A DNA stretch of 64,000 nucleotides. Source: Actinosynnema sp. ALI-1.44 (GTDB lineage Bacteria; Actinomycetota; Actinomycetes; Mycobacteriales; Pseudonocardiaceae). Location: NCBI RefSeq assembly GCF_001984155.1, contig NZ_MTQO01000054.1:62001-126000 (forward strand), in the 5' to 3' direction. The position numbers and the translations under genes are program-made. This document shows positions 23,724 through 48,214 of this stretch, piece after piece (positions within the stretch are counted from its first letter, which is position 1; the number at the start of each line of letters is the position of its first letter). The notes under the pieces were generated by a model. That model saw nothing but the letters and a program-made list of their open reading frames with translations, was not told the DNA's origin and did no database searches.

Positions 23724-23863
23724 CCCCTTCCTCCCGTATGGCCTGGGCGCAGCCCAACCATGGGTGTCAAGGGGTCCGCCTACGCGAAGCAACCCGGCTG
23801 GGAGTCATACGGATCCCCTTGACGCCCATGGTTGCCTTTGGCAGGCCATACGGGAGGAAGGGG
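23724..23863. repeat. Large imperfect palindrome A
   Basis: Outer arms 23724-23745 and 23842-23863 pair perfectly over 22 bp. After an internal loop (9 and 7 nt), CAACCATGGG (23755-23764) pairs with CCCATGGTTG (23825-23834), then TGTCAAGGGG (23765-23774) pairs with CCCCTTGACG (23815-23824, one wobble), then TCCG pairs with CGGA with one bulged T. In all, 46 bp close a 31-nt loop. The same architecture and much of the arm sequence recur at 48072-48214. It contains no gene. It could be a structured RNA, a mobile palindromic repeat or a recombination by-product. Confidence 0.85.
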
Positions 23864-23890
23864 GCGCGGCCCCCTCTCCTCTTGGTGGTC

Positions 23891-24135
23891 TGCCCGTCGG
23901 CGAGGCATTTCTGTTCAGTGTCTGCGGGCGAGGCGCTTCGTTCGGGCTTGTTGGTGAGGCGCTTCTGTGTGGGTGTCCGTCGGCGACGCACTTCCTTCGA
24001 GACAATTCACCCGCCAGCGACGCGTGGTTGCAGTGGCCTGGCGCCGACAAGGCGCCTGCCGTGACAGGCACTCTCCTGCGGCAGTTCACCCGTCGGCGAA
24101 GCGCTCATCTGCGGCCCATCCGTCAGTGGGGTGCT
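23891..24135. repeat. Degenerate tandem repeats, about 28-nt unit
   Basis: The pattern GTCGGCGAGGCGCTTCTG recurs in decayed form near 23896, 23924, 23950, 23980, 24012, 24092 and 24122, with the first four or five copies spaced 26-32 nt. The copies are too divergent and the gaps too short for a CRISPR array. Function is unknown. Confidence 0.5.
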
Positions 24136-24175
24136 TCTGGTGACCGTTGATCCACTGTGGATGTCTTATGGGGAC

Positions 24176-24877
24176 TTAGAGGCGGTTGTGGAGGGCGTCT
24201 GCTGCTGCCAGTAGGTCTGCTGCCCAGCGGGAGCCTGGTCGGCGGCCCATTCTGTCTATGGGGCCTGAGACCGAGACCGCTGCTACGACGTTTCCCGCTC
24301 CGTCTCGGACCGGGGCCGAGACGCTGGCCACTCCTGGTTCTCGCTCCGCCACGCTTTGGGCCCAGCCTCGGCGGCGGACTTCGAGGAGGGCTCGTTCTCC
24401 GAAGACCGCGTCGTTCAGGAGTGCTCGCTGGGTTCCCGGGTCCGCCCATGCCGCCAGGACCTTCGCGCCTGAGCCCGCCGTCATGGGGAGGCGGGCTCCG
24501 ACTGGCACCGTGTCCCTCAGGCCTGATGGCGGTTCCGCCGAGCAGACGCAGATCCTGTGCATCCCGTCACGGCGGTAGAGCTGGACGCTCTCCCCGGTTA
24601 TGTCCCTGAGGCGGGGCAGTACCGCGTTCGCCGCGTCCAGCAGGGGATCGGTCGCCCCGCCCGCCAGTTCCGAGAGCGCCGCCCCCGGGCGCCAGCGTCC
24701 GTCGGATCCCCGGCGCAGCAAGCGATGCACCTCAAGGCCTACCGCGAGCCGGTGCGCCGTCGCCCTGGGCAGTCCGGTCTTCGTGCAGAGTTCCGCCAGA
24801 CCACAGGGTTCTTTGGCCACGGCTTGCAGCACCGCCATTGCCTTGTCCAGTACACCGATTCCGCTATGCTGTCCCAC
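24176..24877 (-). CDS. ndgR: IclR-family regulator of leuCD (NdgR-like)
   Basis: A 233-residue IclR protein with an N-terminal winged helix (VLDKAMAVLQAVAKEPCGLA then ELCTKTGLPRATAHRLAVGL) and a C-terminal effector domain (about 75-230, GARLPMTAGSGAKVLAAWAD). Its divergent position to leuC is conserved in actinobacteria. The Streptomyces NdgR/AreB orthologue binds the leuC promoter and responds to leucine-related signals. Its 3' half borders the T-rich repeat region, and the plus strand opposite its coding strand is also T-rich there. The symbol is assigned from context and is less certain than the family. Confidence 0.88.
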   Translation of the reverse strand: MGQHSGIGVLDKAMAVLQAVAKEPCGLAELCTKTGLPRATAHRLAVGLEVHRLLRRGSDGRWRPGAALSELAGGATDPLLDAANAVLPRLRDITGESVQLYRRDGMHRICVCSAEPPSGLRDTVPVGARLPMTAGSGAKVLAAWADPGTQRALLNDAVFGERALLEVRRRGWAQSVAEREPGVASVSAPVRDGAGNVVAAVSVSGPIDRMGRRPGSRWAADLLAAADALHNRL

Positions 24878-24891
24878 AGAACGATACTAGC

Positions 24892-24924
24892 TTCCCGATA
24901 TCTGAGATGTCCAGTATCTGGGAA
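24892..24924. promoter_or_regulatory. Candidate operator between ndgR and leuC
   Basis: An imperfect inverted repeat, TTCCCGATATC at 24892-24902 and GTATCTGGGAA at 24914-24924, lies midway in the 76-nt divergent gap. It is the best candidate binding site for the IclR protein, which usually autoregulates and controls the divergent gene. Confidence 0.5.
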
Positions 24925-24953
24925 CCCACCACGAAATCTGCGTTGGAGGAGCG

Positions 24954-26390
24954 ATGGGCCACACGCTCGCTGAGAAGGTGTGGAACTCACATGTCGTACG
25001 GCGAGGCGACGGTGACGAACCGGATCTGCTGTACATCGACCTGCACCTGGTCCACGAAGTCACCAGCCCGCAGGCGTTCGACGGATTGCGTCAGGCTGGC
25101 CGCCCGGTCCGCCGTGTCGATCTCACCGTCGCGACCGAGGACCACAACGTCCCCACGATCGACACCGAGCTGCCGATCGCCGATCCGGTGTCGCGCACGC
25201 AGGTCGAGACGCTTCGCCGCAACTGTGCCGAGTTCGGTGTCCCGCTCTACCAGATGGGCCACGACGAACAGGGCATCGTGCACGTCATCGGCCCGCAGCT
25301 CGGGCTGACCCAGCCGGGGACGACCGTGGTGTGCGGCGACAGCCACACCTCCACGCACGGCGCGTTCGGTGCGATGGCGTTCGGCATCGGCACGTCCGAG
25401 GTCGAGCACGTGCTCGCCACGCAGACCCTTCCGCTCAAGCCGTTCAAGACGATGGCGATCAACGTCGCCGGGTCGCTTCGCGCCGGTGTCACCGCGAAGG
25501 ACATCATCCTCGCCGTCATCGCCAAGATCGGAACCGGCGGCGGACAGGGATATGTATTGGAATATCGGGGCAGTGCCATCGAGGAGCTGTCGATGGAAGC
25601 CCGGATGACCGTGTGCAACATGTCCATCGAAGCGGGTGCGCGCGCCGGTCTGATCGCGCCCGACGAGACGACGTTCGCGTATCTGAAGGGGCGCAAGCAC
25701 GCTCCTCGAGGCGCGGACTGGGACGCCGCGGTCGAGGCGTGGCGGCAGTTGCGCACCGATGATGACGCTGTCTTCGATGCCGAGGTGGACCTCGACGCCG
25801 ACGACCTCACCCCGTACGTGACGTGGGGCACCAACCCCGGTCAGGGCCTGCCGTTGTCTGAAAAGGTTCCTGACCCGGAACGCATCGCCGACGAGAACGA
25901 GCGCGCCGCCGCCGAGAAGGCCCTGTCCTACATGGACCTCAAGCCGGGCACCCCGCTGAGGGAGATTCAGGTCGACACCGTCTTCCTCGGATCCTGCACC
26001 AACGGGCGGATCGAGGACCTGCGGGCCGCCGCCGACGTGCTGCGAGGGCACAAAGTCGCCACCGGCGTGCGGATGCTGGTCGTCCCCGGCTCGATGCGGG
26101 TCCGCGAGGCCGCCGAGTCGGAGGGGCTGCACGAGGTCTTCCTGTCGGCGGGCGCCGAGTGGCGGTCCGCGGGTTGCTCCATGTGCCTTGGCATGAACCC
26201 GGACCAGCTCAAGCCGGGCGAGCGCAGCGCATCGACATCAAATCGCAACTTTGAGGGCAGGCAGGGCAAGGGTGGGCGCACGCACCTGGTCTCCCCGTTG
26301 GTCGCCGCGGCGACCGCCGTGCGCGGAACCCTGTCGTCTCCCGAAGACCTGCTCGCAGTCTCCAGCACTGGCACCGCAGGCACGGACTGA
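24954..26390 (+). CDS. leuC: 3-isopropylmalate dehydratase large subunit
   Basis: LeuC with LeuD isomerises 2- to 3-isopropylmalate, and in the citramalate route converts citramalate to 3-methylmalate. The 478 residues have the aconitase-fold 4Fe-4S cysteines ([10 protein letters not shown] near 345 and [13 protein letters not shown] near 405-410), [16 protein letters not shown] and the substrate loop [22 protein letters not shown] 24954 is preceded by GGAGGAG. leuD follows 18 nt after the stop, so the two are an operon. Confidence 0.97.
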
Positions 26391-26408
26391 AGGAAGAAAA
26401 AGCACGTC

Positions 26409-27002
26409 ATGGAGCCTTTCACCAAGCACACGGGGGTCGGCGTACCCCTCCGCCGGTCCAACGTGGACACGGATCAGATCATCCCGGCCGTCTACCTGAA
26501 GCGGGTCAGCAAGACCGGCTTCGAGGACGGTCTGTTCGCCGCGTGGCGGCAGGACGAGCAGTTCATCCTCAACCAGGACCCCTACCGCGCGGGCAGCGTC
26601 CTCGTGGCCGGTCCGGACTTCGGCACCGGCTCGTCGCGCGAGCACGCCGTCTGGGCGCTGGCCGACTACGGCTTCCGGGTCGTCATCTCGGCCAGGTTCG
26701 CCGACATCTTCCGCGGCAACGCGGGCAAGCAGGGGCTGCTCGCGGCCCAGTGCGAACAGCACGATGTGGAGCAACTGTGGAAGCTGCTCGAGGCCGAGCC
26801 GGGCACGGAAGTGACCGTCGACCTGCGGGAAAGGCTTGTCACAGCGAAGGAGTTCACCGCCCCGTTCGGCATCGACGACTACACCCGTTGGCGCCTCTTG
26901 GAAGGCTTGGACGACATCGCGCTGACTCTTCGACACGCCGAAGCGATCGATTCGTTCGAGGCTTCCCGACCCGTCTGGAAGCCCTCCACAACCCTTGCCT
27001 GA
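26409..27002 (+). CDS. leuD: 3-isopropylmalate dehydratase small subunit
   Basis: The 197-residue swivelling-domain partner of LeuC. It has the family markers [40 protein letters not shown] and [11 protein letters not shown]. It starts 18 nt after leuC with GGAAGAAAAA upstream. It serves both leucine and citramalate-based isoleucine synthesis. The hup gene follows on the same strand after 165 nt. Confidence 0.96.
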
Positions 27003-27167
27003 CGGGCTGATTCCAGGGCCAAATGTCACCCCGATGGGCGGATCGCAAAACTCATAAGGAAAAATATGGCGTGGCGCGTGGTGGTCGCGCGCTTTTCGGC
27101 ATATGGTGGCGAGAAGTCGGCCGCAAAGGCCGTAACCGTCTTGTGGTCAATAGTGGAGGACAGAAGG

Positions 27168-27746
27168 GTGAACAAGGCCCAGCTCATCGAGGCGCTCACG
27201 GAACGCCTGGGCGACAAGAAGACCGCAGGCGCTGCGGTCGACGGTCTCGTCGACGTGATCGTTCGCACGGTCAACAAGGGCGAGAAGGTCAACATCACCG
27301 GCTTCGGTGTTTTCGAGAAGCGCGCCCGCGCAGCGCGGACCGCGCGCAACCCGCGCACCGGTGAGACCGTGAAGGTCAAGAAGACCAACGTGCCAGCGTT
27401 CCGGCCCGGCACCGGCTTCAAAGAGGTTGTGAGCGGCGCGAAGAAGCTGCCGAAGGTGGCCGCCGCCAAGTCGGCGACCAGCCGCAGCACCGGCACCACC
27501 ACGCGTGCCGCCGCCACCCGCAGCACGGCGTCGACTCGTACGCGCGCAGCAGCCGCGACGACGACCGCCCGTAAGACGGCCGCCAAGCCGGCCGCCACCA
27601 AGGCGGCCGCGAAGCCGGCAGCAGCCAAGACCACGACCACCCGTCGTGCCGCTGCGAAGCCTGCTGCCGCCAAGACGTCTGCGAAGGCACCGGCGAAGAA
27701 GACCTCCGCCGCGGCCGCCAAGAAGCCGTCGACCCGCAAGAAGTAA
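27168..27746 (+). CDS. hup: HU DNA-binding protein with Lys/Ala-rich tail
   Basis: A 192-residue nucleoid protein. Residues 1-90 are a canonical HU fold ([41 protein letters not shown]). The remaining 100 residues are repeats of Lys, Ala, Thr and Arg ([29 protein letters not shown]) like the histone H1-like tail of mycobacterial HupB, which compacts DNA. GTG 27168 with GGAGGA seven bases upstream is chosen over an in-frame frame opening at 27066. The gene order leuD-hup-mutT1 matches mycobacteria. A very strong terminator follows. Confidence 0.95.
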
Positions 27747-27755
27747 GCAGTAGCC

Positions 27756-27807
27756 ACAAAGCCGTGAGGGCCACCCGGGGACGCCCGGGTGGCCCTCACG
27801 GCTTTGT
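27756..27807. terminator. Strong bidirectional terminator after hup
   Basis: A perfect 24-bp inverted repeat (27756-27779 against 27784-27807) with loop GACG, bounded by ACAAAG and CTTTGT. It separates hup from the convergent mutT1 gene. The following 174 nt up to the mutT1 stop contain no gene that I can support. Confidence 0.92.
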
Positions 27808-27981
27808 CATGGGATGCCCCTGTCAGGGCTCTCGCGGCTTCGGTCGGGTGCCAAGGTGCCCCTGGACGATCTGGCACTCCCGGACCGGCTACGGCCCAAC
27901 TGGGTGCCTTTCAAGGTCATTGCCGGGGGCGTCGCGGGCGTCCGCGCGGGATTCCCCCAACAGTGTTTCCAGACCGGGGTT

Positions 27982-28866
27982 TCACGGCTTGGGGAGCGGA
28001 CTGGGATAGTAATCGGCCGCAACCAGGCCAAGTCCCGGTTGGACGAAGGTCAGCACCACCAGACTGCCCTTCTTCGCGCGGACTTCCGGCAGGTCAAGGC
28101 CTGATTCCTTGGCGTAGGCAGAGATCAGACCGGGGATCACGCCGCCCTGGCTGGACACCACCGCGATCCCCTCGCCACCAGCGATCTCCCGCAGCGCGGC
28201 GACCGCGGCGGCCGGGTCGGCCGAATACCCCTGTTCACCTAACGACGGCTCGATCCGGACCGTCCTACCCAGATCTCCGGCCACGTCGGCAATCGTCTGC
28301 ACACACCGCACGGGCGGCGCCGAATACATCCGGTCGGCGCCGAACAGCGGCAACAAGTCCCGCAGCGCCGCGGCCTGGCGCAGGCCGGCAGGCGACAGCG
28401 GCCGATCGATGTCCGCGCCGCGCCAGCCTTCCCTCTTCCCGGCCTTCGCATGCCGTACGAGCAGCACAGTCGTGGTTTCCGGCGGCAGCTTGAGGAACTC
28501 GGCGAGCACCGCTCTGTCCTGTGGATAAGTGAGGATCTGGCGTGCTTGCGCCGGTGTCAGCCAGCGCATCTCGTCGACTTCCTCGTTCGGTTCGAAAGCC
28601 CCGTCGAGCGCCCGCGCGGCGAAGTAGTCCACGCGTTTGGGCGCCCCGCGCACCGAATACCGAACGGTGTTCAGGTGCCTGCCGAGCACGACGCGGAACC
28701 CGGTCTCCTCGGCCAGTTCCCGCACCGCCGCCCGTGGCGCCGTTTCCCCGTTGTCGATTTTCCCTTTGGGCAGGGTCCAGTCGTCGTAGCGGGGACGGTG
28801 CACGACCGCGACCGTCCCGTCCAGCCACGCGACGGCACCGGCTGCCGCGACAGAACTCTGTGACAC
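27982..28866 (-). CDS. mutT1: MutT1-like Nudix hydrolase fused to histidine phosphatase
   Basis: A 294-residue two-domain protein. The Nudix box GKIDNGETAPRAAVRELAEE lies at about 35-54, and the second domain (about 130-290) is a histidine phosphatase with the RHG-type motif VRHAKAGKREGW. Mycobacterial MutT1 (Rv2985) has this layout and degrades 8-oxo-dGTP and diadenosine polyphosphates. It lies 11 nt downstream of ppk on the same strand, so the two form an operon linking nucleotide and polyphosphate metabolism. GTG 28866 is the start. Confidence 0.93.
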   Translation of the reverse strand: MSQSSVAAAGAVAWLDGTVAVVHRPRYDDWTLPKGKIDNGETAPRAAVRELAEETGFRVVLGRHLNTVRYSVRGAPKRVDYFAARALDGAFEPNEEVDEMRWLTPAQARQILTYPQDRAVLAEFLKLPPETTTVLLVRHAKAGKREGWRGADIDRPLSPAGLRQAAALRDLLPLFGADRMYSAPPVRCVQTIADVAGDLGRTVRIEPSLGEQGYSADPAAAVAALREIAGGEGIAVVSSQGGVIPGLISAYAKESGLDLPEVRAKKGSLVVLTFVQPGLGLVAADYYPSPLPKP

Positions 28867-28877
28867 TTCTCAGCTAC

Positions 28878-31058
28878 TCAGCCTTGGGCCCCGTGCAGGG
28901 CGATCATTTCCCGTTGGTGGTCGCGGACCTGGTCGCTGCCCAGCGGGGCGGGTTCCCATTCGCCATCCGGTTGCAACACCCAGCACCGGGTACCCGGATC
29001 GAGCGCCGAATCGAACATGGCGTCCAATTGTTTTACCAAGCGTGGATTGCGGACCGGGACCTGAACTTCCACCCGGCGGTCGAGATTCCGGTGCATCATG
29101 TCGGCGCTGCCGATCCAGTGCTCGCCGCAGCCGACGAAGTGGAACACCCTGGAGTGCTCGAGGAACCGGCCGAGGATCGAGCGCACCGAGATGTTCTCGC
29201 TCAACCCCTGGATGCCGGGTTTGAGCGCGCAGATGCCCCGCACCACCACGTCGACCCGGACACCGGCCTGTGACGCGCGGTACAGCGCGTCGATGACCTG
29301 CTCGTCTACCAACGAGTTCACCTTGAACCGGATGCCCGCGGCCTTGCCCGCACGGGCGAATTCGATCTCCTGTTCGATCCGCTCCACGATGCCGCGCCGG
29401 ATTCCGTGTGGTGCCACCAGAAGACTGCGGTACGTGTTCTGCCGTGCGTATCCGGTCAGCACGTTGAACAGATCCGTGAGGTCCGCGCCGATGGACGGCT
29501 CGGCCGTGAGCAGGCCGATGTCCTCGTAGAGCCGCGCGGTCTTCGGGTTGTAGTTGCCCGTCCCGATGTGGCAGTACCGGCGGATCGTCGATCCCTCCTG
29601 GCGCACCACGAGCGAGGTCTTGCAGTGCGTCTTGAGGCCGACCAGGCCGTACACCACGTGCACGCCCGCCTTCTCCAGCGCCCTCGCCCACTTGATGTTC
29701 GCTTGCTCGTCGAACCGGGCCTTGATCTCGACGAGCGCGACGACCTGCTTGCCCGCCTCGGCCGCGTCGATCAGCGCGTCCACAATGGGCGAATCACCCG
29801 ATGTCCGGTACAGCGTCTGTTTGATCGCCAGCACGTGCGGGTCGCTGGCCGCCTGCTCGATGAAACGTTGCACACTCGTCGAGAAGGAGTCGTACGGGTG
29901 GTGCACCAGCACGTCGCCTTCCCGCAGCGTCGCGAAGACGCTCTTGGGCGTCTCGTGTTCGGCGAAGGCGGGGTGCGTGGCGGGCACGAACGGCGCGTCC
30001 TTGAGGTCCTTGCGGTCAACCGCATGCAGCTGCCACAGGCACGACAAGTCCAGCAGCCCGTTGATGACCACGACGTCGTTCGGGTGCACCTCCAGCTCAC
30101 GCAGCAGCAGCTCCTGCATGTGCTCGCTCATGTCGCTGGCGATCTCCAGCCGGACCGGCGGGCCGAACCTGCGCTGAGCCAGTTCGCGCTCCAGCGCCAG
30201 CAGCAGGTCCTCGTCGCGGTCCTCCTCGACTTCCAGGTCCGCGTTGCGGGTCACTCGAAACTCGTGCACCTCGGTGACTTCCATTCCGGTGAACAACTCA
30301 CCGAGGTGGGCACCGATCAGATCCTCCAACGGCAGGAACGTGGCGCTCCATTCGTCTCCATTGGACTGCACCTGGAGCAGCCTCGGCACGTTGTCCGGGA
30401 CCTTCACCCTGGCGAAACGCTCGGTGCCCGCCTCCGGGTCCCGCACGGTGACCGCGAGGTTGAGCGACAGCCCCGAGATGTACGGGAACGGGTGCGCCGG
30501 GTCGACCGCGAGCGGGGTCAGCACCGGGAAGACCTGATCGGTGAAGTAGACGCGCAGCCGCTGCTTGTCGTCCTCCTCCAGCTCCGCCCAGCGCACGATC
30601 CGGATCCCGCGCTGCGCCAGCTCCGGCCGGACACGCTGCTCGAACGCCGCGGAGTGCTGCTCGACGAGCTCCTGGTTGCGCTTGGCGATGTACGCCAGCT
30701 GCTCGCGCGGGGTCAGCCCGTCGGCGCTGCGCACCGAAAGCCCGGTCTCCCTGCGGCGCTTGAGCCCGGCCACCCTGACCATGTAGAACTCGTCGAGGTT
30801 GGACGCGAAGATCGCGAGGAACTTCGCCCGTTCGAGCAGCGGCTGCGACTCGTCCTCGGCCAGCGCGAGCACGCGGGCATTGAAGTCCAACCAGGACAGT
30901 TCCCGGTTGAAGTACCGGTCGTCGGGCAGGCCGTCGATCGCCGTGGCGGCTGTTGTCGCGGCAGGCGGGGCCGAGGGAGCGCTCCGTTCGGGCCGGGACG
31001 TCGCGGGTGGCGGCGCAGGCGGCGGCGAGGTCGGCTGGTCGTTGCTTTCGGTGCTCAC
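28878..31058 (-). CDS. ppk: Polyphosphate kinase 1
   Basis: PPK1 polymerises the terminal phosphate of ATP into polyphosphate. The 726 residues start at GTG 31058 with a disordered Pro/Ala/Ser-rich stretch of about 50, then the N-terminal domain from [18 protein letters not shown]. The catalytic region holds [16 protein letters not shown] and the phospho-histidine motif [13 protein letters not shown], followed by [11 protein letters not shown] longer frame reaching back into cofC is rejected. The gene order cofC-ppk-mutT1 is as in M. tuberculosis. Confidence 0.95.
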
Positions 31059-31116
31059 AGCAAGCCATTGTCCAGCACTTATCGCGGGAGTGCGCGTCCC
31101 CGTGTGGACAAGGTGG

Positions 31117-31770
31117 TTAACACTCGATCGGCCCACCGGCCATCGCGCACAGTAGCGCGGTGCTGCGGCGTCCGAGACCGAGATCACGGGCCACCGCGAG
31201 GTCCTGCGCCGTGTCGACGTCGCACCGCAACGACGGCCATTCCCCGGTGAGCGGGAGCGCGCCGGACGCCGTGTGCGCCAGCGCCGAGCCGACGCCGAAC
31301 ATCGGGTCGAGCGGATGCCCCGCCGCGGACAACAACAAGGTGGTGCCCGTCGTCTGCCTGTCGGCGCAGAAAGCGCGCCTGCCATCGGCGGTTTTGATGG
31401 CCGCGGCCAGCTCGTCGGGCCGCAGTGCGGGCAGATCCGCCTGGAGAGCGCCGATTTGTCCCCTGTTGTTCCGGTCGGGACCGTCCGACTGGCGCAGCAG
31501 CGCGGCGCCGTGCCGCAGAGCCTCGTTGAGCCCGTGGGCCGGGCCCTCCGGGACGCACTCGAACCCCTCGGCGGCGAGCACGCTCGCGACATCCGGATCC
31601 GAGCTGACGACCAGCACCCGGCGCACGCCGTCGGTCTGGGCGGCCGCGGTGACTGTGTCCAAAAGCACGGCGAGCACCAGGTTGGTGTGCTCGTCGGGCG
31701 CGACCGCGCCGCGCAGCCGTGACTTGGCGTCCGGCAGCGCCTTCACCGGCACCACGAGATCTGTCTCCAC
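31117..31770 (-). CDS. cofC: Phosphoenolpyruvate/2-phospholactate guanylyltransferase (F420 synthesis)
   Basis: CofC, called FbiD in actinobacteria, transfers GMP from GTP to phosphoenolpyruvate (or 2-phospholactate) to make the precursor of coenzyme F420. The 217-residue nucleotidyltransferase fold shows [15 protein letters not shown] at the N-terminus, [29 protein letters not shown] (metal-binding Asp) and [18 protein letters not shown] near the end. GTG 31770 is the start. It lies 58 nt upstream of ppk on the same strand and is divergent from the acyltransferase gene. Its presence implies F420-dependent redox enzymes in this organism. Confidence 0.92.
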
Positions 31771-31858
31771 CGTGACGATTCTGCATCAAAACCAGGCCGG
31801 AATGCCTGTGATGGGCAGGACCTAGACTCCTGGGGTCTTGTACTGCGGAGGAGGAGCC

Positions 31859-32575: not shown

Positions 32576-32576
32576 C

Positions 32577-38491: not shown

Positions 38492-38541
38492 AACCCTCGT
38501 GAGTGCCAGGGTTCTGACCCCGGCAAACACTCACGAGGGTT
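38492..38541. terminator. Terminator after ddl (AACCCTCGTGAGTG family)
   Basis: AACCCTCGTGAGTG (38492-38505) pairs perfectly with CACTCACGAGGGTT (38528-38541), with CCAGGGTTCTGACCCCGG forming an inner stem. It starts directly after the ddl stop codon and includes the last codons and stop of the convergent DUF3515 gene. The outer arm is identical to that of the ilvC terminator at 6772. Confidence 0.88.
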
Positions 38542-39079: not shown

Positions 39080-39098
39080 GTCCCCACTACAGCACGGG

Positions 39099-39332: not shown

Positions 39333-39441
39333 CGGCGTGCCCCTTCGTCTGGACAAGAATGCTCAAGGTAGGAACGTGGTCAGCAACGTACCCCAACCGG
39401 GGAATGTTTGGTGATCCGAACATTCGGTATCGGAGGCTTTT

Positions 39442-40407: not shown

Positions 40408-40428
40408 AGAGTCCACTTTGGAGGAGCT

Positions 40429-40950
40429 GTGCCGATCTACGCGCTCGGTGACAAGGAGCCGATCATCCATCCGGACGCGTTCGTTCATCCGGATGCGACA
40501 GTCATCGGGGACGTGACGCTGCTGGCGTACGCATCGGTGTGGCCGCAGGCCGTGCTGCGCGGCGACTCCGGCAGCATCCAGGTGGGCGAACGGACGAGCG
40601 TCCAGGACGGCACGATCGTGCACTGCACGGAGTTCCACCCGACCGTGATCGGCAGCAACTGCGTGGTCGGCCACAACGTGCACATCGAGGGCGCGACCGT
40701 CGCCGACCACTGCCTGATCGCCTCGGGTTCCGTGTTGCTCAACGGATCGGTGGTCGAGGAGGGCGCCGTGCTCGGCGCGGGCGCGGTGATGTCCTTCAAC
40801 GGCCACATCCCCGCGCACCGGATGGCGCTCGGCGTACCCGCCCGGATCCGGGAGAACCACGAGGTGCCGCCGATGGCGTGGGCGATGATCGTCGACCGGT
40901 ACGTGGAGAACGTCAAGATCTACAAATCCGGGCTCCGACGCCTGGACTAG
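40429..40950 (+). CDS. Gamma-carbonic anhydrase family protein
   Basis: A 173-residue left-handed beta-helix protein built of hexapeptide repeats. Zinc-ligand histidines fit TIVHCTEFHPTVIG and VVGHNVHIEG, with QAVLRGDSGSIQVGERTSVQ upstream as in gamma-class enzymes such as YrdA or PaaY. It may hydrate CO2 or be a related acyltransferase. GTG 40429 follows GGAGGAG, 21 nt after thiL, so it is probably in the thiL operon. The neighbouring ung gene begins 33 nt after its stop. Confidence 0.88.
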   Translation: MPIYALGDKEPIIHPDAFVHPDATVIGDVTLLAYASVWPQAVLRGDSGSIQVGERTSVQDGTIVHCTEFHPTVIGSNCVVGHNVHIEGATVADHCLIASGSVLLNGSVVEEGAVLGAGAVMSFNGHIPAHRMALGVPARIRENHEVPPMAWAMIVDRYVENVKIYKSGLRRLD

Positions 40951-40983
40951 CCGCATTTTTGGGGTCGGCTAGTCTTTGGCGGC

Positions 40984-41658
40984 ATGGCACGTCCTCTGAA
41001 CGAAGTCATGGACCAGGGCTGGGCACAAGCGCTCGAGCCGGTCGCGGACCGGATCGCGGCGATGGGTGAGTTCCTGCGCGCCGAGGTCGCCGCGGGCCGC
41101 ACCTACCTGCCCGCCGGGGAGAACGTGTTGCGCGCGTTCAAGCAGCCGTTCGACGACGTGCGCGTGCTCATCGTCGGGCAGGACCCGTACCCGACGCCGG
41201 GACACGCCGTCGGCCTGTCCTTCTCCGTTGCCCCGGACGTGCGGCCGATCCCGAAGAGCCTGATCAACATCTACAAGGAGTACTGCGAGGACCTCGGGCA
41301 CCCCAAGCCGTCCAACGGTGACCTGACGCCGTGGGCCGAGAACGGTGTGCTGCTGCTCAACAGGGCGCTGTCGGTGATGCCTGGCAAGCCGAACTCGCAC
41401 CAGGGCAAGGGCTGGGAAGAAGTGACCGAGCAGGCGATCAAGGCGCTGGCCGCGCGTGGCAAGCCGCTCGTGTCGATCCTGTGGGGCCGCAACGCCCGCA
41501 ACCTCCGGCCGCTGCTCGACCCGTTGCCGTGCATCGAGTCCGCGCACCCGAGCCCGATGTCGGCCGCCGGTGGCTTCTTCGGCTCGCGTCCGTTCAGCCG
41601 CGCCAACGAACTCCTGACGCAGCAGGGCGCTTCGCCGGTCGACTGGAAGCTGCCGTAA
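40984..41658 (+). CDS. ung: Uracil-DNA glycosylase
   Basis: Ung removes uracil from DNA to start base-excision repair, important in a high-GC genome exposed to cytosine deamination. The 224 residues show the water-activating motif [20 protein letters not shown] (about 60-79), [26 protein letters not shown] and the DNA-binding motif [15 protein letters not shown] 14 nt before the start resembles a -10 box, which suggests its own promoter. The length is typical of the actinobacterial enzyme. Confidence 0.96.
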
Positions 41659-41663
41659 CGATT

Positions 41664-41682
41664 GTCCTCGCTCCGCGAGGAC
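41664..41682 (+). terminator. Hairpin after ung
   Basis: Perfect 8-bp stem GTCCTCGC/GCGAGGAC with loop TCC, six bases after the ung stop. A second, longer inverted repeat (CCGACATC at 41729-41736 with GATGTCGG at 41771-41778) lies in the same 171-nt gap. Neither has a good T-run. Confidence 0.6.
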
Positions 41683-41829
41683 GGGCTTGGTCGCCGGGAG
41701 CCGGTCATTGCCACCCCGCCCCACGCGACCGACATCTTCGCTGTGGCCTGCTGGCAGGCGTGGTTGGGGCGATGTCGGGCGTGTTGCGTGGCGTCAACGA
41801 CCAGCGCGACCAAGCCGCAACCAGGCATA

Positions 41830-42483
41830 ATGGCGGCAGTGGGAATCACTGCGCTCATTTTTGACTTCGACGGTCTGCTCATGGACACCGAGTCCACGCA
41901 GTTGCACAGCTGGCAGTACGAGTGGCGGCAGCACGGTCTCGAGCTCGACGTGACGACGTTCTTCGCCGATCACGGCGGAGACGTCTCCGAGCTCAGATAC
42001 GCCGCGCTGGCCGCCGCTGTCGGTTCCGGCTACGACCGCGTGTCCAGCCACGCTCGTCGTATCGAGTACCGGGATTCGCTCAACGCTGAACTGGAGCTGC
42101 GGCCCGGAATCCGGGAGTGGCTCGATTCGGCGGATGGCTTCCGGCTGGCTGTGGCCAGCAGTTCGCCCGCTGCCTGGGTTCTGCCGCTGCTGGAGAAGTC
42201 CGGCTACCGCTCCCGGTTCGAAGTCGTGGCATGCGGTGACGAGGTCGGTGCGCACAAGCCGGACCCAGCGGTGTACTCGCTCGCGTTGCGCCGCTTGGAG
42301 ATCTCCGCCGACCAAGCGATTGCCTTCGAGGACACGCCACACGGCGTCGCGGCAGCCAAGGCCGCCGGGCTGCGCTGTGTCGCGATCCCGAACCCGCACA
42401 CCGATCCGGCCCGGCTTGCCGCCGCGGACCTGGTGTTGGCCAGTGCCGCGGACATGAGCCTGGCAGAGGTCGTCAGCTCGTAG
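41830..42483 (+). CDS. HAD-family hydrolase, beta-phosphoglucomutase-like
   Basis: A 217-residue HAD subfamily IA protein. Motif I is ALIFDFDGLLMDTES, the substrate cap follows, motif II is LAVASSSPAAWV, motif III is the Lys in GAHKPDPAVYSLAL, and motif IV is IAFEDTPHGVAAAKAAGL. The pattern fits beta-phosphoglucomutase or small sugar-phosphate phosphatases. ATG 41830 is chosen as the first start directly before the conserved N-terminus; the frame upstream lacks family similarity. It has no clear ribosome binding site. Confidence 0.9.
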   Translation: MAAVGITALIFDFDGLLMDTESTQLHSWQYEWRQHGLELDVTTFFADHGGDVSELRYAALAAAVGSGYDRVSSHARRIEYRDSLNAELELRPGIREWLDSADGFRLAVASSSPAAWVLPLLEKSGYRSRFEVVACGDEVGAHKPDPAVYSLALRRLEISADQAIAFEDTPHGVAAAKAAGLRCVAIPNPHTDPARLAAADLVLASAADMSLAEVVSS

Positions 42484-42529
42484 AGAAAACAGGTTCCTCA
42501 GTCACCTCCGGCGTCAATAGCGTGGGGTG

Positions 42530-43726
42530 ATGCGGCGGGATCTGGCGTTGATCGCCACCGGGGTCGGGGTTTCGGCATTCGGCACCAGCCTCGGCAGGCT
42601 CGTGCTGATGGTCCAGTTCAAGGACCACGGCGCGTTCGCGCTGGCCGCGTTGATGATCGCCGCGCTGCTGCCCGCGTCGCTCGGCGCGCCGTTCGCCGGG
42701 CTGCTGGTCGACCGGCTGCCCAACCGCAGGCTGATGCAGCAGGCCCAGTTCCTCCAGGCGATCGCGACGCTGGCGATCGCGTTCCTGATCGACAACGTCG
42801 CGGTGGTCCTGATCGCGACGCTGGTCGTCGGGTGCGGCGCGGCCGTCGCGGACCCGGCCGCCGCCACCCTCGCGCCCCGCGCGGCCGGGCCCGGTGACGT
42901 CGCGAAAGGCTTCGCCTGGCTGGCATCCAGCCGGTGGGCCGGTTACGTCCTCGGCACGGCCGCGGGTGGCGTGCTGATCACCGTGGTCGGTGGGAAGAAC
43001 GCGATCCTGATCGACGCAGGGACTTTTCTCGCGCAGGCCATGTTGTTGCTGCTGCTCAAGGTCGACCGGGACCCACGGGTCGAGAGCGGCGAACGCGACA
43101 GCAAGAAGGGTGCCGCCATGGCGGGTATCCGGCACATGGCGCGCGACAGGGTGATCACCGTCAGCCTCGGGGGCCTCGCGGTCGTGGCGTTGTGCGTCGC
43201 GCTGATCAACGTCGCCGACATCTTCCTGATCACCGACGTCCTGCGCGGCGGGGTCGTGCTGATCGGCTGGGTCTACGCGGCGTGGATGATCGGGTCGATC
43301 CTCGGCTCGAGAACGGCCGGGCGGCTCGTGCACCAGCGGTCGATGGTCCGGACGTTGGGCTGGGCGGGAGCCGCGCTCGGGCTGGCCATCCTCATCCCCG
43401 CGGCCTTGCCGTACACCGCTGTGATGGTCGTCGCATTCCTCTGCGGTGGGTTCGCCAACGGGATGCAGAACGTCTCGCGTCAGGCGCTCGTCCGGCTCCG
43501 AACCCCGGACCACCTGCACGGTCGCGCCTTCGCGGCCACCGACTCGGTGATGCGCACGGCCAACGCCGTGGGCACGATGATCGCCGGTTTCGTGGTCACC
43601 GGCGTCGGCCCGCAGTGGGCGATGGGCGCGGCGGGCGCCGCCGCCACGCTGATCAGCCTCGGCACACTGCTGATCGCCCGTGAACGCGAACCGGCCCGGG
43701 TGGTCGAGACCACCCGGGCCGGTTGA
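42530..43726 (+). CDS. Major facilitator superfamily transporter
   Basis: A 398-residue membrane protein with about ten to twelve hydrophobic segments and the cytoplasmic loop GLLVDRLPNRRLMQQAQFLQ typical of MFS exporters of the enterobactin/macrolide type. The central linker is hydrophilic (DRDPRVESGERDSKKG). The substrate cannot be told, although drug or siderophore export is the common role. An ATG at 42530 overlaps a GTG at 42527 as alternative start. The last 12 codons encode a terminator hairpin (see 43691). It is convergent with rpmB. Confidence 0.9.
   Translation: MRRDLALIATGVGVSAFGTSLGRLVLMVQFKDHGAFALAALMIAALLPASLGAPFAGLLVDRLPNRRLMQQAQFLQAIATLAIAFLIDNVAVVLIATLVVGCGAAVADPAAATLAPRAAGPGDVAKGFAWLASSRWAGYVLGTAAGGVLITVVGGKNAILIDAGTFLAQAMLLLLLKVDRDPRVESGERDSKKGAAMAGIRHMARDRVITVSLGGLAVVALCVALINVADIFLITDVLRGGVVLIGWVYAAWMIGSILGSRTAGRLVHQRSMVRTLGWAGAALGLAILIPAALPYTAVMVVAFLCGGFANGMQNVSRQALVRLRTPDHLHGRAFAATDSVMRTANAVGTMIAGFVVTGVGPQWAMGAAGAAATLISLGTLLIAREREPARVVETTRAG
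43691..43722. terminator. Bidirectional terminator inside the MFS gene end
   Basis: CCGGCCCGGGTGGTC (43691-43705) pairs with GACCACCCGGGCCGG (43708-43722), immediately before the TGA of the transporter and 17 nt from the rpmB stop on the other strand. The hairpin is therefore both coding and structural. The plus-strand T-run is short, so its strength is uncertain. Confidence 0.75.
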
Positions 43727-43739
43727 AAGAGCGAACGCG

Positions 43740-43931
43740 TCAGCCCCGGACGACCTTGCCCGCCTTCAGGCAGGAGGTGCACACGTTCAGCCGCTTGCGC
43801 TGCGAAACGCCCAGCTTGGCGTGCACGGTCTGGATGTTCGGGTTCCACCGCCGGTTGGTGCGCCGGTGGGAGTGCGAGACCGACTTGCCGAAGCCCGGCC
43901 CTTTACCGCAGACGTCGCACACAGCAGCCAC
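43740..43931 (-). CDS. rpmB: Ribosomal protein L28
   Basis: The 63-residue L28 protein has [20 protein letters not shown] with a CxxC pair and a second CTSCLKAGK pair, so this copy is the zinc-binding type. Actinomycetes often carry a second, zinc-free L28 elsewhere under Zur control. It reads GTG 43931 and is divergent from the DAK2 gene with 212 nt between them. That gap holds the two promoters, and I see no other element in it. Confidence 0.95.
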
Positions 43932-44143
43932 GTCAGTGTCCTTTCCTCTGGGTTTGCCGCCGGATCGAGGCCGACGACGTACAGCCCGGGCCTGCCAGGC
44001 AACTTGAACAGGGTAACGGGTCGCGTCCGGCGGTTACAAACCGGCCCCGTTCTCGCCGCTGCGGGTGTGTTCGCGGTTACCCTCGCGCCGACCCAATCAC
44101 CGGTGCCCGACTCATCGGTGCCCGACAGCGGGAGGACACGACC

Positions 44144-45760
44144 GTGCTGCAGGCCCTGGATGCCGCCGCGATCCGCCGCTGGGCCGCCATGAGCGTGCGG
44201 ACACTCGACGCGCAGCGCGAGGCGATCGACAACATCAACGTCTTCCCGGTGCCGGACGGCGACACCGGCTCCAACCTGCTCGGAACCATGAGAGCAGCTC
44301 TTGAGGCCCTGCTCAGGGCACCCGTGGACCAGCGGTCCGAGGCCGGTGCGGCGCTCGCGGTCCTCGCCAAGGGAGCGTTGGCCGGCGCGCGGGGCAACTC
44401 CGGCGTGATCGTGTCGCAGATGCTGCGCGGGCTCGCCGAGTCGCTGCGCGCGGTCGACCAGGCCGGTGCGCACGACCTGGCGAAAGCCATGGTCAGGGCC
44501 GCCGAGCTGGCCGCGGAGGCGGTCGCCGAGCCGCGCGCGGGCACGATGCTGACCGTGCTGACCGCGTCCGCCGCCGGGGCCCGCCGGATCCGGTCGGGCG
44601 TGTTGCACGAGGTCACGGCCGCTGCCGCGCGGTCCGCGTCGGAGGCACTGTCGCTGACACCACAGCAGCTCGACGTGCTGGCGGAGGCGGGTGTGGTCGA
44701 TGCTGGGGGGCGTGGCGTGCTCGTACTCCTGGAAGCCCTGGTCACGGTCGTGAACGAACGTGACGAGCCGGTCGTGCCGTACTCGACGTCCCAGCCCTCG
44801 CCGGTCGCGGCGCGTGAGGCGGGGTCGACGGAGTTCGGCTACGAGGTCATGTACCTGCTGGACTCCACCAGCGACGACGCGGCCGCATCGCTGCGTGACA
44901 CGCTGGCCAAACTGGGCGACTGCGTGTCCGTCGTCGGCGACGGTGACGGGTTGTGGACCGTCCATGTGCACTGCAACGACGTCGGCGGGGCGATCGAGGC
45001 CGGTGTCGAGGCGGGCAGGCCGCATCGGATCATGGTCGCCCGGTTCGCCGACGCCGAAAGCGCGCCGTCCCGGTTCGGTCGCGCACGGGTCGTGGTCATC
45101 CCGGCCAGGGGCGCGGGCATCGCGGCGCTGTTCCGTACTGAGGGCGCGCTGGTCCTGGAGATCGGGGCGAACGACGACCCCGACGTGTGGGATCTGCTGA
45201 ACCTGATCACCTCGACCGGGGCGTCCCACGTCACCGTGCTGCCCGGCGACCAGGACCTGATGGGCATCGCCGACGAGGCCGCGGCCAGAGCCGTCGCCGG
45301 GGGGCAGGACGTCGTCGTGATCCCCTGCGTGTCGCCGGTGCAAGCGCTTGCGGCCCTGGCTGTGCACGACTCGGCGCGGCGCGCGGGCGACGACGTGGTG
45401 TCGATGGCGGAGGCCGCCGCGGCGACCCGGCGCGGCGAACTCCTGGTGGCCGACGAGGACGCGATCACGTGGATCGGCCCGTGCCGCGCCGGTGACCTGC
45501 TCGGCTTCGCGGACGGCGAGGTGATGCGCATCGAACACGGCCCGGTGGACCCGTCGACGGTGCTGCGCGGAGCCTGCGCGGTCATCGACCGGATGCTGAC
45601 CTCGGGTGGTGAGCTGGTCACGGCGTTGCTCGGCGCCGACGCCCCGGACGACCTGAGCGACGAGCTGGAGAAGCACCTGCGGAGCGAGTACCCGGCCGTC
45701 GACTTCGTGTCGTACCGCGGCGGACAGCGCGACAACGTACTCATGTTCGGTGTCGAGTGA
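44144..45760 (+). CDS. DAK2 domain protein (YloV/FakA-like)
   Basis: A 538-residue protein with an N-terminal DhaL-type ATP-binding domain (INVFPVPDGDTGSNLLGTMR; GARGNSGVIVSQMLRGLAES) and a C-terminal DegV-accessory region (about 230-530). The Firmicutes orthologue FakA is a fatty-acid kinase that works with the DegV-type fatty acid carrier FakB. Here no degV gene is adjacent. The pair DAK2-recG is conserved in actinobacteria and Firmicutes. The GTG at 44144 follows GGGAGGAC. recG starts 34 nt after the stop. Confidence 0.9.
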   Translation: MLQALDAAAIRRWAAMSVRTLDAQREAIDNINVFPVPDGDTGSNLLGTMRAALEALLRAPVDQRSEAGAALAVLAKGALAGARGNSGVIVSQMLRGLAESLRAVDQAGAHDLAKAMVRAAELAAEAVAEPRAGTMLTVLTASAAGARRIRSGVLHEVTAAAARSASEALSLTPQQLDVLAEAGVVDAGGRGVLVLLEALVTVVNERDEPVVPYSTSQPSPVAAREAGSTEFGYEVMYLLDSTSDDAAASLRDTLAKLGDCVSVVGDGDGLWTVHVHCNDVGGAIEAGVEAGRPHRIMVARFADAESAPSRFGRARVVVIPARGAGIAALFRTEGALVLEIGANDDPDVWDLLNLITSTGASHVTVLPGDQDLMGIADEAAARAVAGGQDVVVIPCVSPVQALAALAVHDSARRAGDDVVSMAEAAAATRRGELLVADEDAITWIGPCRAGDLLGFADGEVMRIEHGPVDPSTVLRGACAVIDRMLTSGGELVTALLGADAPDDLSDELEKHLRSEYPAVDFVSYRGGQRDNVLMFGVE

Positions 45761-45794
45761 AAAGTGTCGGACTGGCTCGTTAATGTGAGTTGCG

Positions 45795-47954
45795 ATGACT
45801 TCGTTTGATGACAGCTTGCAGCCCATCTTGGGCAAGAAGTCGGCCGACGCGCTGGCGGCAGCCCTCGAGCTGCACACGGTCGGCGATCTGCTGCGGCACT
45901 ACCCGCGCCGCTACGAGGAGTTCGGCGAGCTGACCAACATCGCCGGGTTGGAGATAGGCGAGCACGTCACGATCCAGGCGGAGATCACCAGGGTCACCAA
46001 GCACCAGATGCGCCAGCGGCACGGCACCCGCACCGAGGTGGAGATCACCGACGGGCAGCGCAAGCTGACGATGTCGTTCTTCAACCAGCTCGGCAAGTAC
46101 AAGGACCAGCTGAAGGTCGGCGCCCAGGGCTTCTTCGCCGGCAAGGTCGGCATGTTCAACAAGAAGCTCCAGCTGCAGAACCCGGAAGTGCAGATCTTCG
46201 AGGAAGAGGACGAGGAGCTGCAGAAGATGCGGCCCGTCTACCCGGCGGCGGCGAAGATGCCGACGTGGAAGGTCGCCAACTGCGTCCGCCAGCTGCTGGG
46301 TGTCTGGGAGGGCGCGGAGGACCCGCTCCCGCCGGAACTGCGCAAGGACCGCGGGATGATGCCGCTCGACGCGGCACTGCGCGCGATCCACATGCCCGAA
46401 GGCTGGGACCAGGTCACGGCGGCGAGGAAACGCCTCAAGTGGGACGAGGCGATCGCCGTGCAGTTGGCGCTGGCGTTGCGCCGCCAGGCGACCGCGGCCC
46501 GCCCTGCGCCGGCGTGTCCGCGGAAGTCCGGCGGGATCCTGGACGCGTTCGACGAGCGGCTGCCCTTCGAACTGACGGCGGGACAGCAGGAGGTCGGCGA
46601 GACGATAGCCGAGGACCTGACCACCCGGCACCCGATGAACCGCCTGCTGCAAGGCGAAGTCGGCAGCGGTAAGACCATCGTGGCCCTGCGCGCGATGCTG
46701 CAGGTGGTGGACTCGGGGCGGCAGGCCGCGATGCTCGCGCCAACCGAAGTACTGGCCGCGCAGCACGCGCGCTCGTTGCAGGAGATGCTCGGAGACCTGG
46801 CGCAGGCCGGGGAGCTGGGCGGTGCCGAGCAAGCGACCCGGCTGACGTTGCTGACCGGTTCGTTGCCCGCGGCCGCTCGTAAGCAGGCGCTGCTGGACGC
46901 GGCCTCCGGCGCGGCCGGGATCGTCGTCGGCACGCACGCTTTGATCCAGGACAAGGTGTCTTTCGCCGACCTGGGCTTCGTAGTCGTCGACGAGCAGCAC
47001 CGATTCGGTGTGGAGCAACGCGATGCGCTGCGTACTCGCGCTGCCGACGGTTCAAGCCCGCACGTGCTTGTCATGACCGCCACACCTATTCCCCGCACGG
47101 TCGCTATGACCGTGTACGGCGACCTGGAGACTTCCGCGTTGCGGGAGTTGCCGCGTGGCCGCTCTCCTATCGCGACGAACGTCGTGCCGGTGGCGGAGAA
47201 ACCCCAGTGGCTTGATCGCGTGTGGCAGCGGGTGCGTGAGGAAGTCGGCTCTGGTCACCAAGCCTATGTGGTGTGTCCCCGAATCGGTGAGGCGGGGGCG
47301 GAGGAGGCTGAAGAGCCGCCCCTGAACGACGACGGCCGCCGTCAGCCGCTTGCGGTTGAAGAGGTCGCGCCCATGCTGGCGTCGGGTCCCCTCAACGGGC
47401 TCCGCATCGCGGTGCTGCACGGGAAGATGCCCGCGGACGAGAAGGACGCCACGATGCGTGCGTTCGCCGCGGCCGAGGTCGATGTGCTCGTGGCCACGAC
47501 TGTCGTCGAGGTCGGCGTGAACGTGCCGAACGCCACGGTGATGGTGATCATGGATGCTGATCGGTTCGGCGTCAGCCAGTTGCACCAGCTGCGGGGCCGT
47601 GTGGGGCGGGGGAGCGCTCCTGGGCTGTGCCTGCTGGTGAGCGAGGCCTTGGACGGGACGACCACGCGGGAGCGGCTGGACGCCGTCGCCTCCACTGTGG
47701 ATGGTTTCGAGCTGGCTCAGCTGGATTTGGAGATCCGGCGGGAGGGGGACATTCTCGGGGCCACGCAGTCCGGGAAACGGTCGCAGTTGAAGATGCTTTC
47801 TCTGCTTCGGGATTCCGCGGTTATCGGGGAGGCTCGGGAGGTTGCTCAGCGGTTGGTTTCCGCGGATCCCGGGTTGGGGAGTAGTCCTGGTTTGCGGGGT
47901 ATGGCTGAGACTCTCGTTGATTCCGAGCGGGCTGAGTTTTTGCAGAAGGCTTGA
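45795..47954 (+). CDS. recG: ATP-dependent DNA helicase RecG
   Basis: RecG remodels stalled replication forks and Holliday junctions. The 719 residues comprise the wedge/OB domain (about 60-170), Walker A LLQGEVGSGKTIVALRAMLQ, the DEQH box VVDEQHRFGVEQR, TATPIPRTVAM and the C-terminal helicase motifs (VDVLVATTVVEVGVNVPNA; QLHQLRGRVGRG). The last 100 codons use more T-ending codons (GGT, GTT, TCT) than the rest, and the gene ends next to the T-rich repeat region at 47955. Confidence 0.96.
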   Translation: MTSFDDSLQPILGKKSADALAAALELHTVGDLLRHYPRRYEEFGELTNIAGLEIGEHVTIQAEITRVTKHQMRQRHGTRTEVEITDGQRKLTMSFFNQLGKYKDQLKVGAQGFFAGKVGMFNKKLQLQNPEVQIFEEEDEELQKMRPVYPAAAKMPTWKVANCVRQLLGVWEGAEDPLPPELRKDRGMMPLDAALRAIHMPEGWDQVTAARKRLKWDEAIAVQLALALRRQATAARPAPACPRKSGGILDAFDERLPFELTAGQQEVGETIAEDLTTRHPMNRLLQGEVGSGKTIVALRAMLQVVDSGRQAAMLAPTEVLAAQHARSLQEMLGDLAQAGELGGAEQATRLTLLTGSLPAAARKQALLDAASGAAGIVVGTHALIQDKVSFADLGFVVVDEQHRFGVEQRDALRTRAADGSSPHVLVMTATPIPRTVAMTVYGDLETSALRELPRGRSPIATNVVPVAEKPQWLDRVWQRVREEVGSGHQAYVVCPRIGEAGAEEAEEPPLNDDGRRQPLAVEEVAPMLASGPLNGLRIAVLHGKMPADEKDATMRAFAAAEVDVLVATTVVEVGVNVPNATVMVIMDADRFGVSQLHQLRGRVGRGSAPGLCLLVSEALDGTTTRERLDAVASTVDGFELAQLDLEIRREGDILGATQSGKRSQLKMLSLLRDSAVIGEAREVAQRLVSADPGLGSSPGLRGMAETLVDSERAEFLQKA

Positions 47955-48071
47955 TTTTTGGTTCGGTTCGGGAAGGATTTTCCCTCGCCGGGGGGCTGAC
48001 CTCTGGGCAGGAGGTTCTTCGCTGGGTGTTCTTCCGGCGCATGCTTTCTTGTCCCGGGGTTTGAGGGCGCG

Positions 48072-48214
48072 GGTGTCCCCTGCCCGTCGACCTGCCCCAG
48101 GGAACCACGGTCTATCAAGAGGATCGGTTTGGCTGTCGCTGGGGCTCTTGGGGTAGGCCGACCTCTTGACAGCCCGTGGTTGGCCTTCGCCCAGGCCGAC
48201 GGGCAGGAGACACC
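48072..48214. repeat. Large imperfect palindrome B
   Basis: The outer arms 48072-48094 and 48192-48214 match in 21 of 23 positions. After an internal loop, AACCACGG (48103-48110) pairs with CCGTGGTT (48174-48181), TCAAGAGG (48115-48122) pairs with CCTCTTGA, and TCGG pairs with CCGA after one bulged A. The apical loop is about 32 nt. Arm sequence and architecture match palindrome A at 23724-23863 (shared blocks include GGCCTGGGCG, CCAACCA and GTCAAG). The two are members of one repeat family. Confidence 0.83.

What the first reader, a model, noticed from the sequence alone, without database searches (positions are those of the whole stretch)
23724..48214. Two related 140-nt imperfect palindromes in matching gene-free islands
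Palindrome A (23724-23863) and palindrome B (48072-48214) have the same layout: 22-23 bp outer arms, an internal loop, inner stems of about 8-10 and 8-12 bp, a TCSG/CSGA stem with a one-base bulge, and a 30-nt apical loop. Their arms share sequence blocks (GGCCTGGGCG, CCAACCA, GTCAAG), so they derive from one element, and the arms of each differ in compensatory fashion, which suggests selection for pairing or recent gene conversion. Both lie in gene-free, T-rich islands with degenerate repeats on the right. It may be a non-coding RNA family, a palindromic mobile repeat, or a nucleoid or replication element.
Basis: seen in the sequence. Interest (0 to 1): 0.75.

Follow-up and report, generated by a model that had tools for sequence, protein, structure and literature searches.

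The report
Repeated cross-shaped RNA-like hairpins near gene ends
The two palindromes belong to a family of about 140-base, cross-shaped hairpins that some soil actinobacteria carry in up to dozens of copies near the ends of genes, with signs that the folded transcript, not just the DNA, is what evolution preserves.

Summary
Observation confirmed. Palindromes A (23724-23863) and B (48072-48214) are divergent copies of one family. The own genome holds 59 copies at 41 loci, 18 of them inverted pairs. The family occurs in 8 of 8 genomes of the genus (Kibdelosporangium, inferred), in 41 of 200 sampled genomes of its family (Pseudonocardiaceae), in few beyond. Forty chosen copies covary strongly (33 of 45 pairs changed on both sides). 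On one strand G.U pairs outnumber A.C mismatches 130 to 30, and that strand folds better as RNA in 122 of 145 copies. In the genus it is the strand read from a gene's 3' end into the hairpin (113 of 149). Divergent (promoter) gaps are avoided (3 of 108 loci). On the inner side lies a CUGCC-stem-GGCGA-stem module. Its 5' part imitates the hairpin's own left arm and varies with it. Best reading: a transcribed 3'-end structured RNA (terminator or 3'-end protector) that multiplies as a repeat. REP/RAYT mobility is unlikely: the most copy-rich genomes checked lack Y1 transposases. Function is inferred. Outside the genus the sense-orientation test was not significant (26 of 44), and no expression data were available.

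The parts
23724..23863 (+). Palindrome A: cross-shaped hairpin. Left arm L about 23724-23745, mini-hairpin GGC-GCA-GCC about 23746-23754, long inner stem with apical loop, right arm R about 23842-23863 (sub-boundaries approximate)
   Evidence: RNA fold of 23724-23920 z -7.1
23884..23905 (+). Inner module of unit A (GGTGGTCTGCC..CGTCGGCGAGG). The L-imitating segment M starts upstream of it (about 23872). Only weakly T-rich after it
23631..23691 (+). Smaller outer hairpin whose apical sequence resembles that of palindrome A
   Evidence: seen by eye in sequence; not tested statistically
23323..23396 (+). tRNA-Glu whose 3' side faces the outer side of unit A
24176..24877 (-). IclR-like regulator ORF convergent with tRNA-Glu (name from appearance, not from a profile search)
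   Evidence: ORF; conserved in 8 of 8 genus genomes by DNA; not called by my gene caller
48072..48214 (-). Palindrome B: cross-shaped hairpin in the reading direction inferred for the RNA (from the right-hand gene). L about 48193-48214, R about 48072-48093
   Evidence: RNA fold of 47965-48214 minus strand z -5.5
47982..48013 (-). Inner module of unit B (CTCCTGCCCAGAGGTCAGCC..CCGGCGAGGG); a variant that the strict patterns do not match
45816..47954 (+). recG-like gene left of unit B (name recalled from gene order and length, not from a profile search)
48450..49541 (-). ORF whose 3' end faces the outer side of unit B

Best explanation
The palindromes are copies of a lineage-specific structured RNA element encoded near gene ends. 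RNA polymerase leaving a gene reads, in order, the left arm, a junction with side hairpins, a long inner stem, the right arm, and then the inner module CUGCC-NNNN-GGCGA-NNNN, often followed by U-rich sequence. I think it ends transcripts and protects their 3' ends (terminator plus nuclease barrier), and in inverted pairs does so for both convergent genes. It multiplies and is lost as a repeat: copies resemble each other within a genome, and the hairpin can be deleted between its left arm and the similar segment M. Shown: repeat family, structure and covariation, one-strand G.U excess, position and orientation in the genus, deletion scars. Inferred: transcription, termination or protection, and how copies spread.
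For: 59 places in the own genome. 40 diverse copies: 33 of 45 pairs changed on both sides, 88.4% of cells paired against 74.9% shuffled, covariation 0.424 against 0.083-0.142 for slid versions. G.U 130 against A.C 30 cells on the inferred RNA strand. That strand is more stable as RNA in 122 of 145 copies. Outer side faces a gene 3' end in 44 of 57 (own genome) and 69 of 92 (six relatives). Divergent gaps hold 2 of 34 and 1 of 74 loci (Fisher tests). Found after tRNA-Glu in 8 of 8 species and after tmRNA in two. Inner module downstream in 29 of 59 and 47 of 94 units, 0 on the outer side; in 21 of 27 loci found with a model that does not contain it, 0 elsewhere.
Against: No expression data. Outside the genus the upstream gene faces the unit in only 26 of 44 calls (p 0.29), although the downstream gene is convergent in 34 of 44; an earlier look at 27 such loci gave 8 against 10. 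The gene caller is home-made and misses low-GC3 genes. The gene end is a median 219 nt away (range 74-1597, 44 cases), long for a terminator. The module pattern is absent in about half of the genus units. U tracts are weak in many copies, including both window units. A one-strand G.U excess could also come from selection on single-stranded DNA or, in part, from strand-biased mutation. Copies are not independent. In G003 the mean strand preference is absent.
Confidence: 0.5

Rival explanations
1. Selfish palindromic DNA repeat (REP/REPIN- or MITE-like) moved in trans by an enzyme that recognises one folded DNA strand; position near gene ends is what insertion and purging leave behind.
For: Dispersed multi-copy family with genome-specific subfamilies, inverted pairs, site B occupied in 2 of 8 species, near-identical copies L255 and L256 in G199. 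REPs are also described as mostly between unidirectional and convergent ORFs (PMC3733652, passages).
Against: No Y1 transposase in 8 of 12 genomes searched, including the copy-rich G000, G002, G044, G081 and G199. Proteins between two widely spaced copy pairs (L243, L244; first 90 residues, judged by eye) look cellular. Site A is kept in 8 of 8 species. No match in plasmids or phages with unit A. Other transposase families were not searched, and three further intervals were seen only as gene coordinates.
Confidence: 0.25
2. Stand-alone small RNA genes with their own promoter, acting in trans or binding a protein, rather than a cis 3'-end element.
For: Strongly covarying fold plus a conserved downstream module; no common function evident among 10 neighbouring proteins, 3 of them without any NCBIfam match; sense orientation to the upstream gene not significant outside the genus; long distance to the gene end.
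Against: Orientation to flanking genes in the genus. No promoter scan was made, so this rival is weighed only on position.
Confidence: 0.15
3. No function: palindromes kept near-perfect by mutational correction (template switching) and gene conversion, surviving in neutral gaps.
For: Copies resemble each other within a genome; deletion scars through direct repeats.
Against: Does not by itself predict the G.U over A.C excess on one strand, the constant side of the inner module, or avoidance of divergent gaps.
Confidence: 0.07
4. Nucleoid, supercoiling or replication site (like gyrase-binding BIMEs).
For: Position between convergent genes; in G002, 36 of 36 loci taken from the truncated list lie within 4.2 Mb of oriC.
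Against: No fork orientation bias among 24 single units (9 of 24, fork meeting point assumed at half the contig); the origin bias may only reflect where core genes lie; a strand-specific G.U excess is unexpected for duplex DNA binding.
Confidence: 0.03

Closest known systems
REP / BIME / REPIN palindromic repeats
   Same: Dispersed extragenic palindromes, often as dimers, mostly between convergent or unidirectional ORFs (PMC3733652: abstract start in listings and passages)
   Different: About 140 nt with a branched fold against 20-40 bp; no Y1 transposase in the copy-rich genomes checked; inner module on a constant side; L-M-R three-way relation. The GTAG or CGTC tag was not tested
ERIC / NEMIS / RU-type intergenic palindromic elements
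   Same: Intergenic repeats of similar size (RU-1 127 bp, RU-2 168 bp, RU-3 103 bp: abstract start of PMC2759123); [quoted passage not shown]
   Different: Other lineages; ERIC is predicted to fold as a single long stem-loop (PMC2267715 passage); no downstream module was mentioned in what I saw
Intrinsic transcription terminators
   Same: Hairpin near gene 3' ends, often followed by T-rich sequence; inverted pairs could act on both genes
   Different: Far larger, a homologous multi-copy family, covarying fold, weak or absent U tract in many copies, usually 150-370 nt from the gene end
Transcription attenuators (trp-type 1:2, 2:3, 3:4 logic; recalled)
   Same: Right arm R can pair with L or with downstream M; M ends in the CUGCC of the final module
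   Different: Convergent rather than regulated downstream genes at many sites; L-R is the stronger predicted pairing in 50 of 50

Membership tests
REP (GTAG/CGTC) repeats | 20-40 bp unit | tested here: not met
   Units 122-224 nt, most near 140; size definition from the abstract of PMC3733652 (listing)
REP (GTAG/CGTC) repeats | RAYT (Y1 transposase) in the genome | tested here: not met
   PF01797: 0 in G000, G001, G002, G007, G044, G081, G199, G028; matches in G003, G004, G005, G006. No link of those to the palindromes was examined
REP (GTAG/CGTC) repeats | GTAG or CGTC tag at one end | not tested
   No tag search was made
Any Rfam 15 family | Score above gathering threshold | tested here: not met
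   Window: 2 matches, both tRNAs. 20 related loci: 11 matches, tRNA, tmRNA and one group II intron. Permissive search of 23400-24100: 10 matches, best E 0.098, families of animals and viruses or a weak radC RNA match (16.5 bits against 40)
Structured RNA family | Covariation beyond controls | tested here: met
   0 of 500 shuffles reach any of five measures; related rows inflate this, and the structure was derived from the same alignment
Structured RNA family | Expression as RNA | not testable with these tools
   No RNA-seq available
Intrinsic terminator | GC-rich hairpin followed by U tract | tested here: inconclusive
   T-rich sequence after the module in many printed copies, weak in window A and B; not counted, and the terminator scan tool was not run
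Integron attC site | Conserved GTT/AAC core boxes (recalled) | tested here: not met
   AACCA/TGGTT is replaced by CGAGC/GCTTG in L233, L236 and L257 (by eye); integrases were not searched
MITE / IS-derived element | Target-site duplication or autonomous partner | not tested
   No clean filled/empty pair of close strains was available; only Y1 transposases were searched

The most novel reading that the evidence does not exclude
The unit is a three-state RNA switch placed at transcript ends. The right arm R can pair with the left arm L (cross-shaped hairpin, final module free to end transcription) or with the imitation segment M, which ends in the CUGCC of the final module, so that R-M pairing would dismantle that module and allow read-through into the convergent neighbour, producing antisense RNA. 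A repeat family would thus carry attenuator logic to dozens of gene ends and couple convergent genes.
Probability: 0.15. Interest if true: 0.85.

Novelty: new variant of a known kind. Interest (0 to 1): 0.62.

Why it matters
It adds a lineage-restricted, structured element near gene ends to large actinobacterial genomes, where transcript ends are poorly understood. It offers a ready-made set of dozens of natural variants per genome, including copies that have lost the hairpin, to test whether palindromic repeats are selfish DNA or working RNA. That is a long-standing question about REPs and similar repeats.

Tried and rejected
Autonomous transposon with palindromic ends: five pairs of copies 4-8 kb apart in G044, G081 and G199 have no constant mutual orientation; proteins printed for two of the five intervals (L243, L244; first 90 residues, judged by eye) look cellular, the other three were seen as gene coordinates only. 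RAYT/REP: no Y1 transposase in copy-rich genomes. attC sites: core not conserved (by eye). Replication orientation: none. Known RNA families: none. Plasmid or phage origin: no blastn match for unit A. Common function of neighbouring genes: none evident in 10 examined. Side hairpins: the first is better than shuffled letters (40 of 40 against 25.6 expected), the second is not (40 of 40 against 38.3), so the second is not established. Origin bias in G044 not significant (16 listed loci, p 0.09, origin position assumed). Literature: eight searches were answered (one search was about hairpin loops). No listed row describes this family, but searches listed only 12 of 191, 12 of 409 and 10 of 4,480 papers, and the library holds open-licence papers only. 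Of three papers I saw passages; of the others only listings with the start of the abstract.
Full report
WHAT IS THERE. Both palindromes exist as described. Read on opposite strands they are collinear, and their arms differ by paired changes. The window lies in an 11.7 Mb genome of 54 contigs. Both named genera are Pseudonocardiaceae.

COPIES. BLAST with B found 40 scored places, and a covariance model R1 (47 copies) gave 115 strand-matches in the own genome. I resolved these into 59 places at 41 loci, 18 of them inverted pairs, two places being degenerate. The palindromes of a pair start about 430 bp apart and are joined by an inner inverted repeat. The window copies are single units: A read on +, away from tRNA-Glu; B read on -, away from the 48450-49541 ORF.

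DISTRIBUTION. R1 matched 8 of 8 genus genomes, own included, and 41 of 200 sampled genomes of the family, 16 of 46 genera. A broader model R2 (40 copies) matched 38 of 397 genomes of the order, 34 of them in the own family and 4 in three other families, and only the own genome among 396 drawn from the phylum. Only 8 to 78 candidates per genome were scored in these searches, so presence and copy numbers are lower bounds. Plasmid and phage collections gave no match with unit A.

STRUCTURE. Outer stem of about 22 bp, a junction with side hairpins, an inner stem of about 22 bp or more, and an apical loop of variable length. Across 40 chosen copies: 88.4% of cells paired (shuffled 74.9), 33 of 45 pairs with changes on both sides (22.0), covariation 0.424 (0.186 shuffled; 0.083-0.142 slid), 0 of 500 shuffles as high. 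Related rows, and a structure derived from the same alignment, inflate these figures. The first mini-hairpin often has a GNA loop (GCA 10, GAA 8, GTA 2 of 40) and exceeds shuffled letters; the second does not.

WHICH STRAND. On the strand read from outer to inner side, the 45 pairs of the 40 copies hold 1443 Watson-Crick, 130 G.U, 30 A.C and 177 other cells, 20 with gaps (by genus: Kibdelosporangium G.U 61, A.C 11; other genera 69 and 19). The same strand has the lower RNA folding energy in 122 of 145 distinct copies: 53 of 57 in G000, 32 of 44 in G002, and 4 of 6 in G003, where the means do not differ. This fits RNA; single-stranded DNA of that strand, and partly strand-biased mutation, would also fit.

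POSITION. With a simple codon-based gene caller, the outer side faces a gene 3' end in 44 of 57 palindromes of G000 (2 unknown) and 69 of 92 in six relatives; in G000 the gene end is a median 219 nt away. Loci are convergent in 16 of 34 and 34 of 74, divergent in 2 of 34 and 1 of 74. Fisher tests against other gaps of 50 nt or more in the same loci gave p from 5e-4 to 3e-12; gap length was not matched. In other genera the upstream gene faces the unit in 26 of 44 (not significant), the downstream gene is convergent in 34 of 44 (p 4e-4), and 2 of 35 are divergent (61 units, the rest unknown); an earlier run on 27 of these loci with the Kibdelosporangium codon model gave 8 against 10. So nearness to gene 3' ends and avoidance of promoters generalise, but the sense-direction rule is shown only in the genus. 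Site A (tRNA-Glu) holds the element in 8 of 8 genus genomes: clear in six, farther from the IclR-like gene in G005 and enlarged in G006. Site B (recG) holds it in 2 of 8, judged by eye on up to 900 nt after the gene. tmRNA sites carry it in G000 and G001 (20 loci examined).

INNER MODULE. On the inner side, in sense, lies C[CT]GCC-N1-8-GGCGAG: 29 of 59 units in G000 and 47 of 94 in relatives, none on the outer side in either strand; 9 relatives also show a partner's copy in antisense on the inner side. Of 17 loci from other genera, 16 have it on exactly one side; of the 13 whose strand one search prints, 12 agree with the R1 strand. With R2, which does not contain it, and a slightly looser pattern, it is downstream in 21 of 27 loci (two seen before) and nowhere else. 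Printed copies show changing but complementary bases either side of GGCGA and, often, T-rich sequence after it; I did not count either. In the own genome a strict pattern has 37 matches, the reversed control 0.

ARM IMITATION. The segment M before CUGCC resembles the unit's own left arm L more than other groups' segments do: 43 of 43 groups on average, 115 of 129 units. The predicted R-M duplex is stronger with own M (-32.7 kcal/mol) than with other groups' M (-26.4) or shuffled M (-21.8), the former in 49 of 50 representatives; the spacer before M gives -17.6 (36 cases). L-R is stronger still in 50 of 50. So M varies with the arms, by selection for an alternative pairing or by homogenisation of L and M.

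LOSS. I read ten loci of module matches without an intact hairpin of their own and the C45:377667 site. Five of these eleven (C36, C44, C49:399155, C49:459185, C45:377667) look like clean fusions of L and M with the hairpin gone; four are other truncations (C33, C45:301825, C49:387975, C32), C51:57952 is unclear, and C34 looks unrelated. Clean fusions are what deletion between direct repeats at a palindrome would leave.

MOBILITY. No Y1 transposase in G000, G001, G002, G007, G044, G081, G199 or G028; present in G003-G006. Fork orientation of 24 single units in G002: 9 with the fork. In G002, whose contig ends at dnaA, the 36 loci that I took from the truncated list lie within 4.2 Mb of that point (median 0.76 Mb; KS p 1e-7), which may only show where conserved genes lie.

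CONCLUSION. The evidence supports a lineage-specific repeat family whose one-strand fold is maintained and which sits near gene ends with a conserved downstream module. I commit to a transcribed 3'-end element (about 0.5). A selfish repeat that tolerates such sites remains the main rival.

Noticed in passing
L083 (G007 recG 3' side), L097 (G001 site A), L028 about 1310-1400: A second, shorter recurrent palindrome (CTCGTGAGTG...CACTCACGAG, about 50 nt, inner stem changing between copies) takes similar gene-end positions.
   Followed up: no
L094, L096, L099 (site A of G003, G004, G007): Another shared palindrome, CTCCACTGTGGA..TCCACAGTGGAG, follows the element at site A.
   Followed up: no
JOAA01000008/11/19/35: Records titled Rhodococcus rhodnii NRRL B-16535 have contig lengths of G003, which the tool places in the window's genus: the label looks wrong.
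   Followed up: partly
G002 single contig: Listed copies crowd towards the replication origin; 2.95-7.56 Mb holds none of the copies that were listed (the list was truncated).
   Followed up: partly
L134 521-596 minus (G000 C49): Rfam group II intron match about 2 kb from a copy of the element.
   Followed up: no
window 23896-24120 and 48230-48410: Degenerate short repeats (GGCGAGGC-like; CTGCGCTTGCGCGC-like) flank the units; the second recurs outside many B-type copies.
   Followed up: partly
L098 1087-1310 and L228 2583-2776 (G006): In G006 the element is enlarged (194-224 nt) with a much longer apical domain.
   Followed up: no
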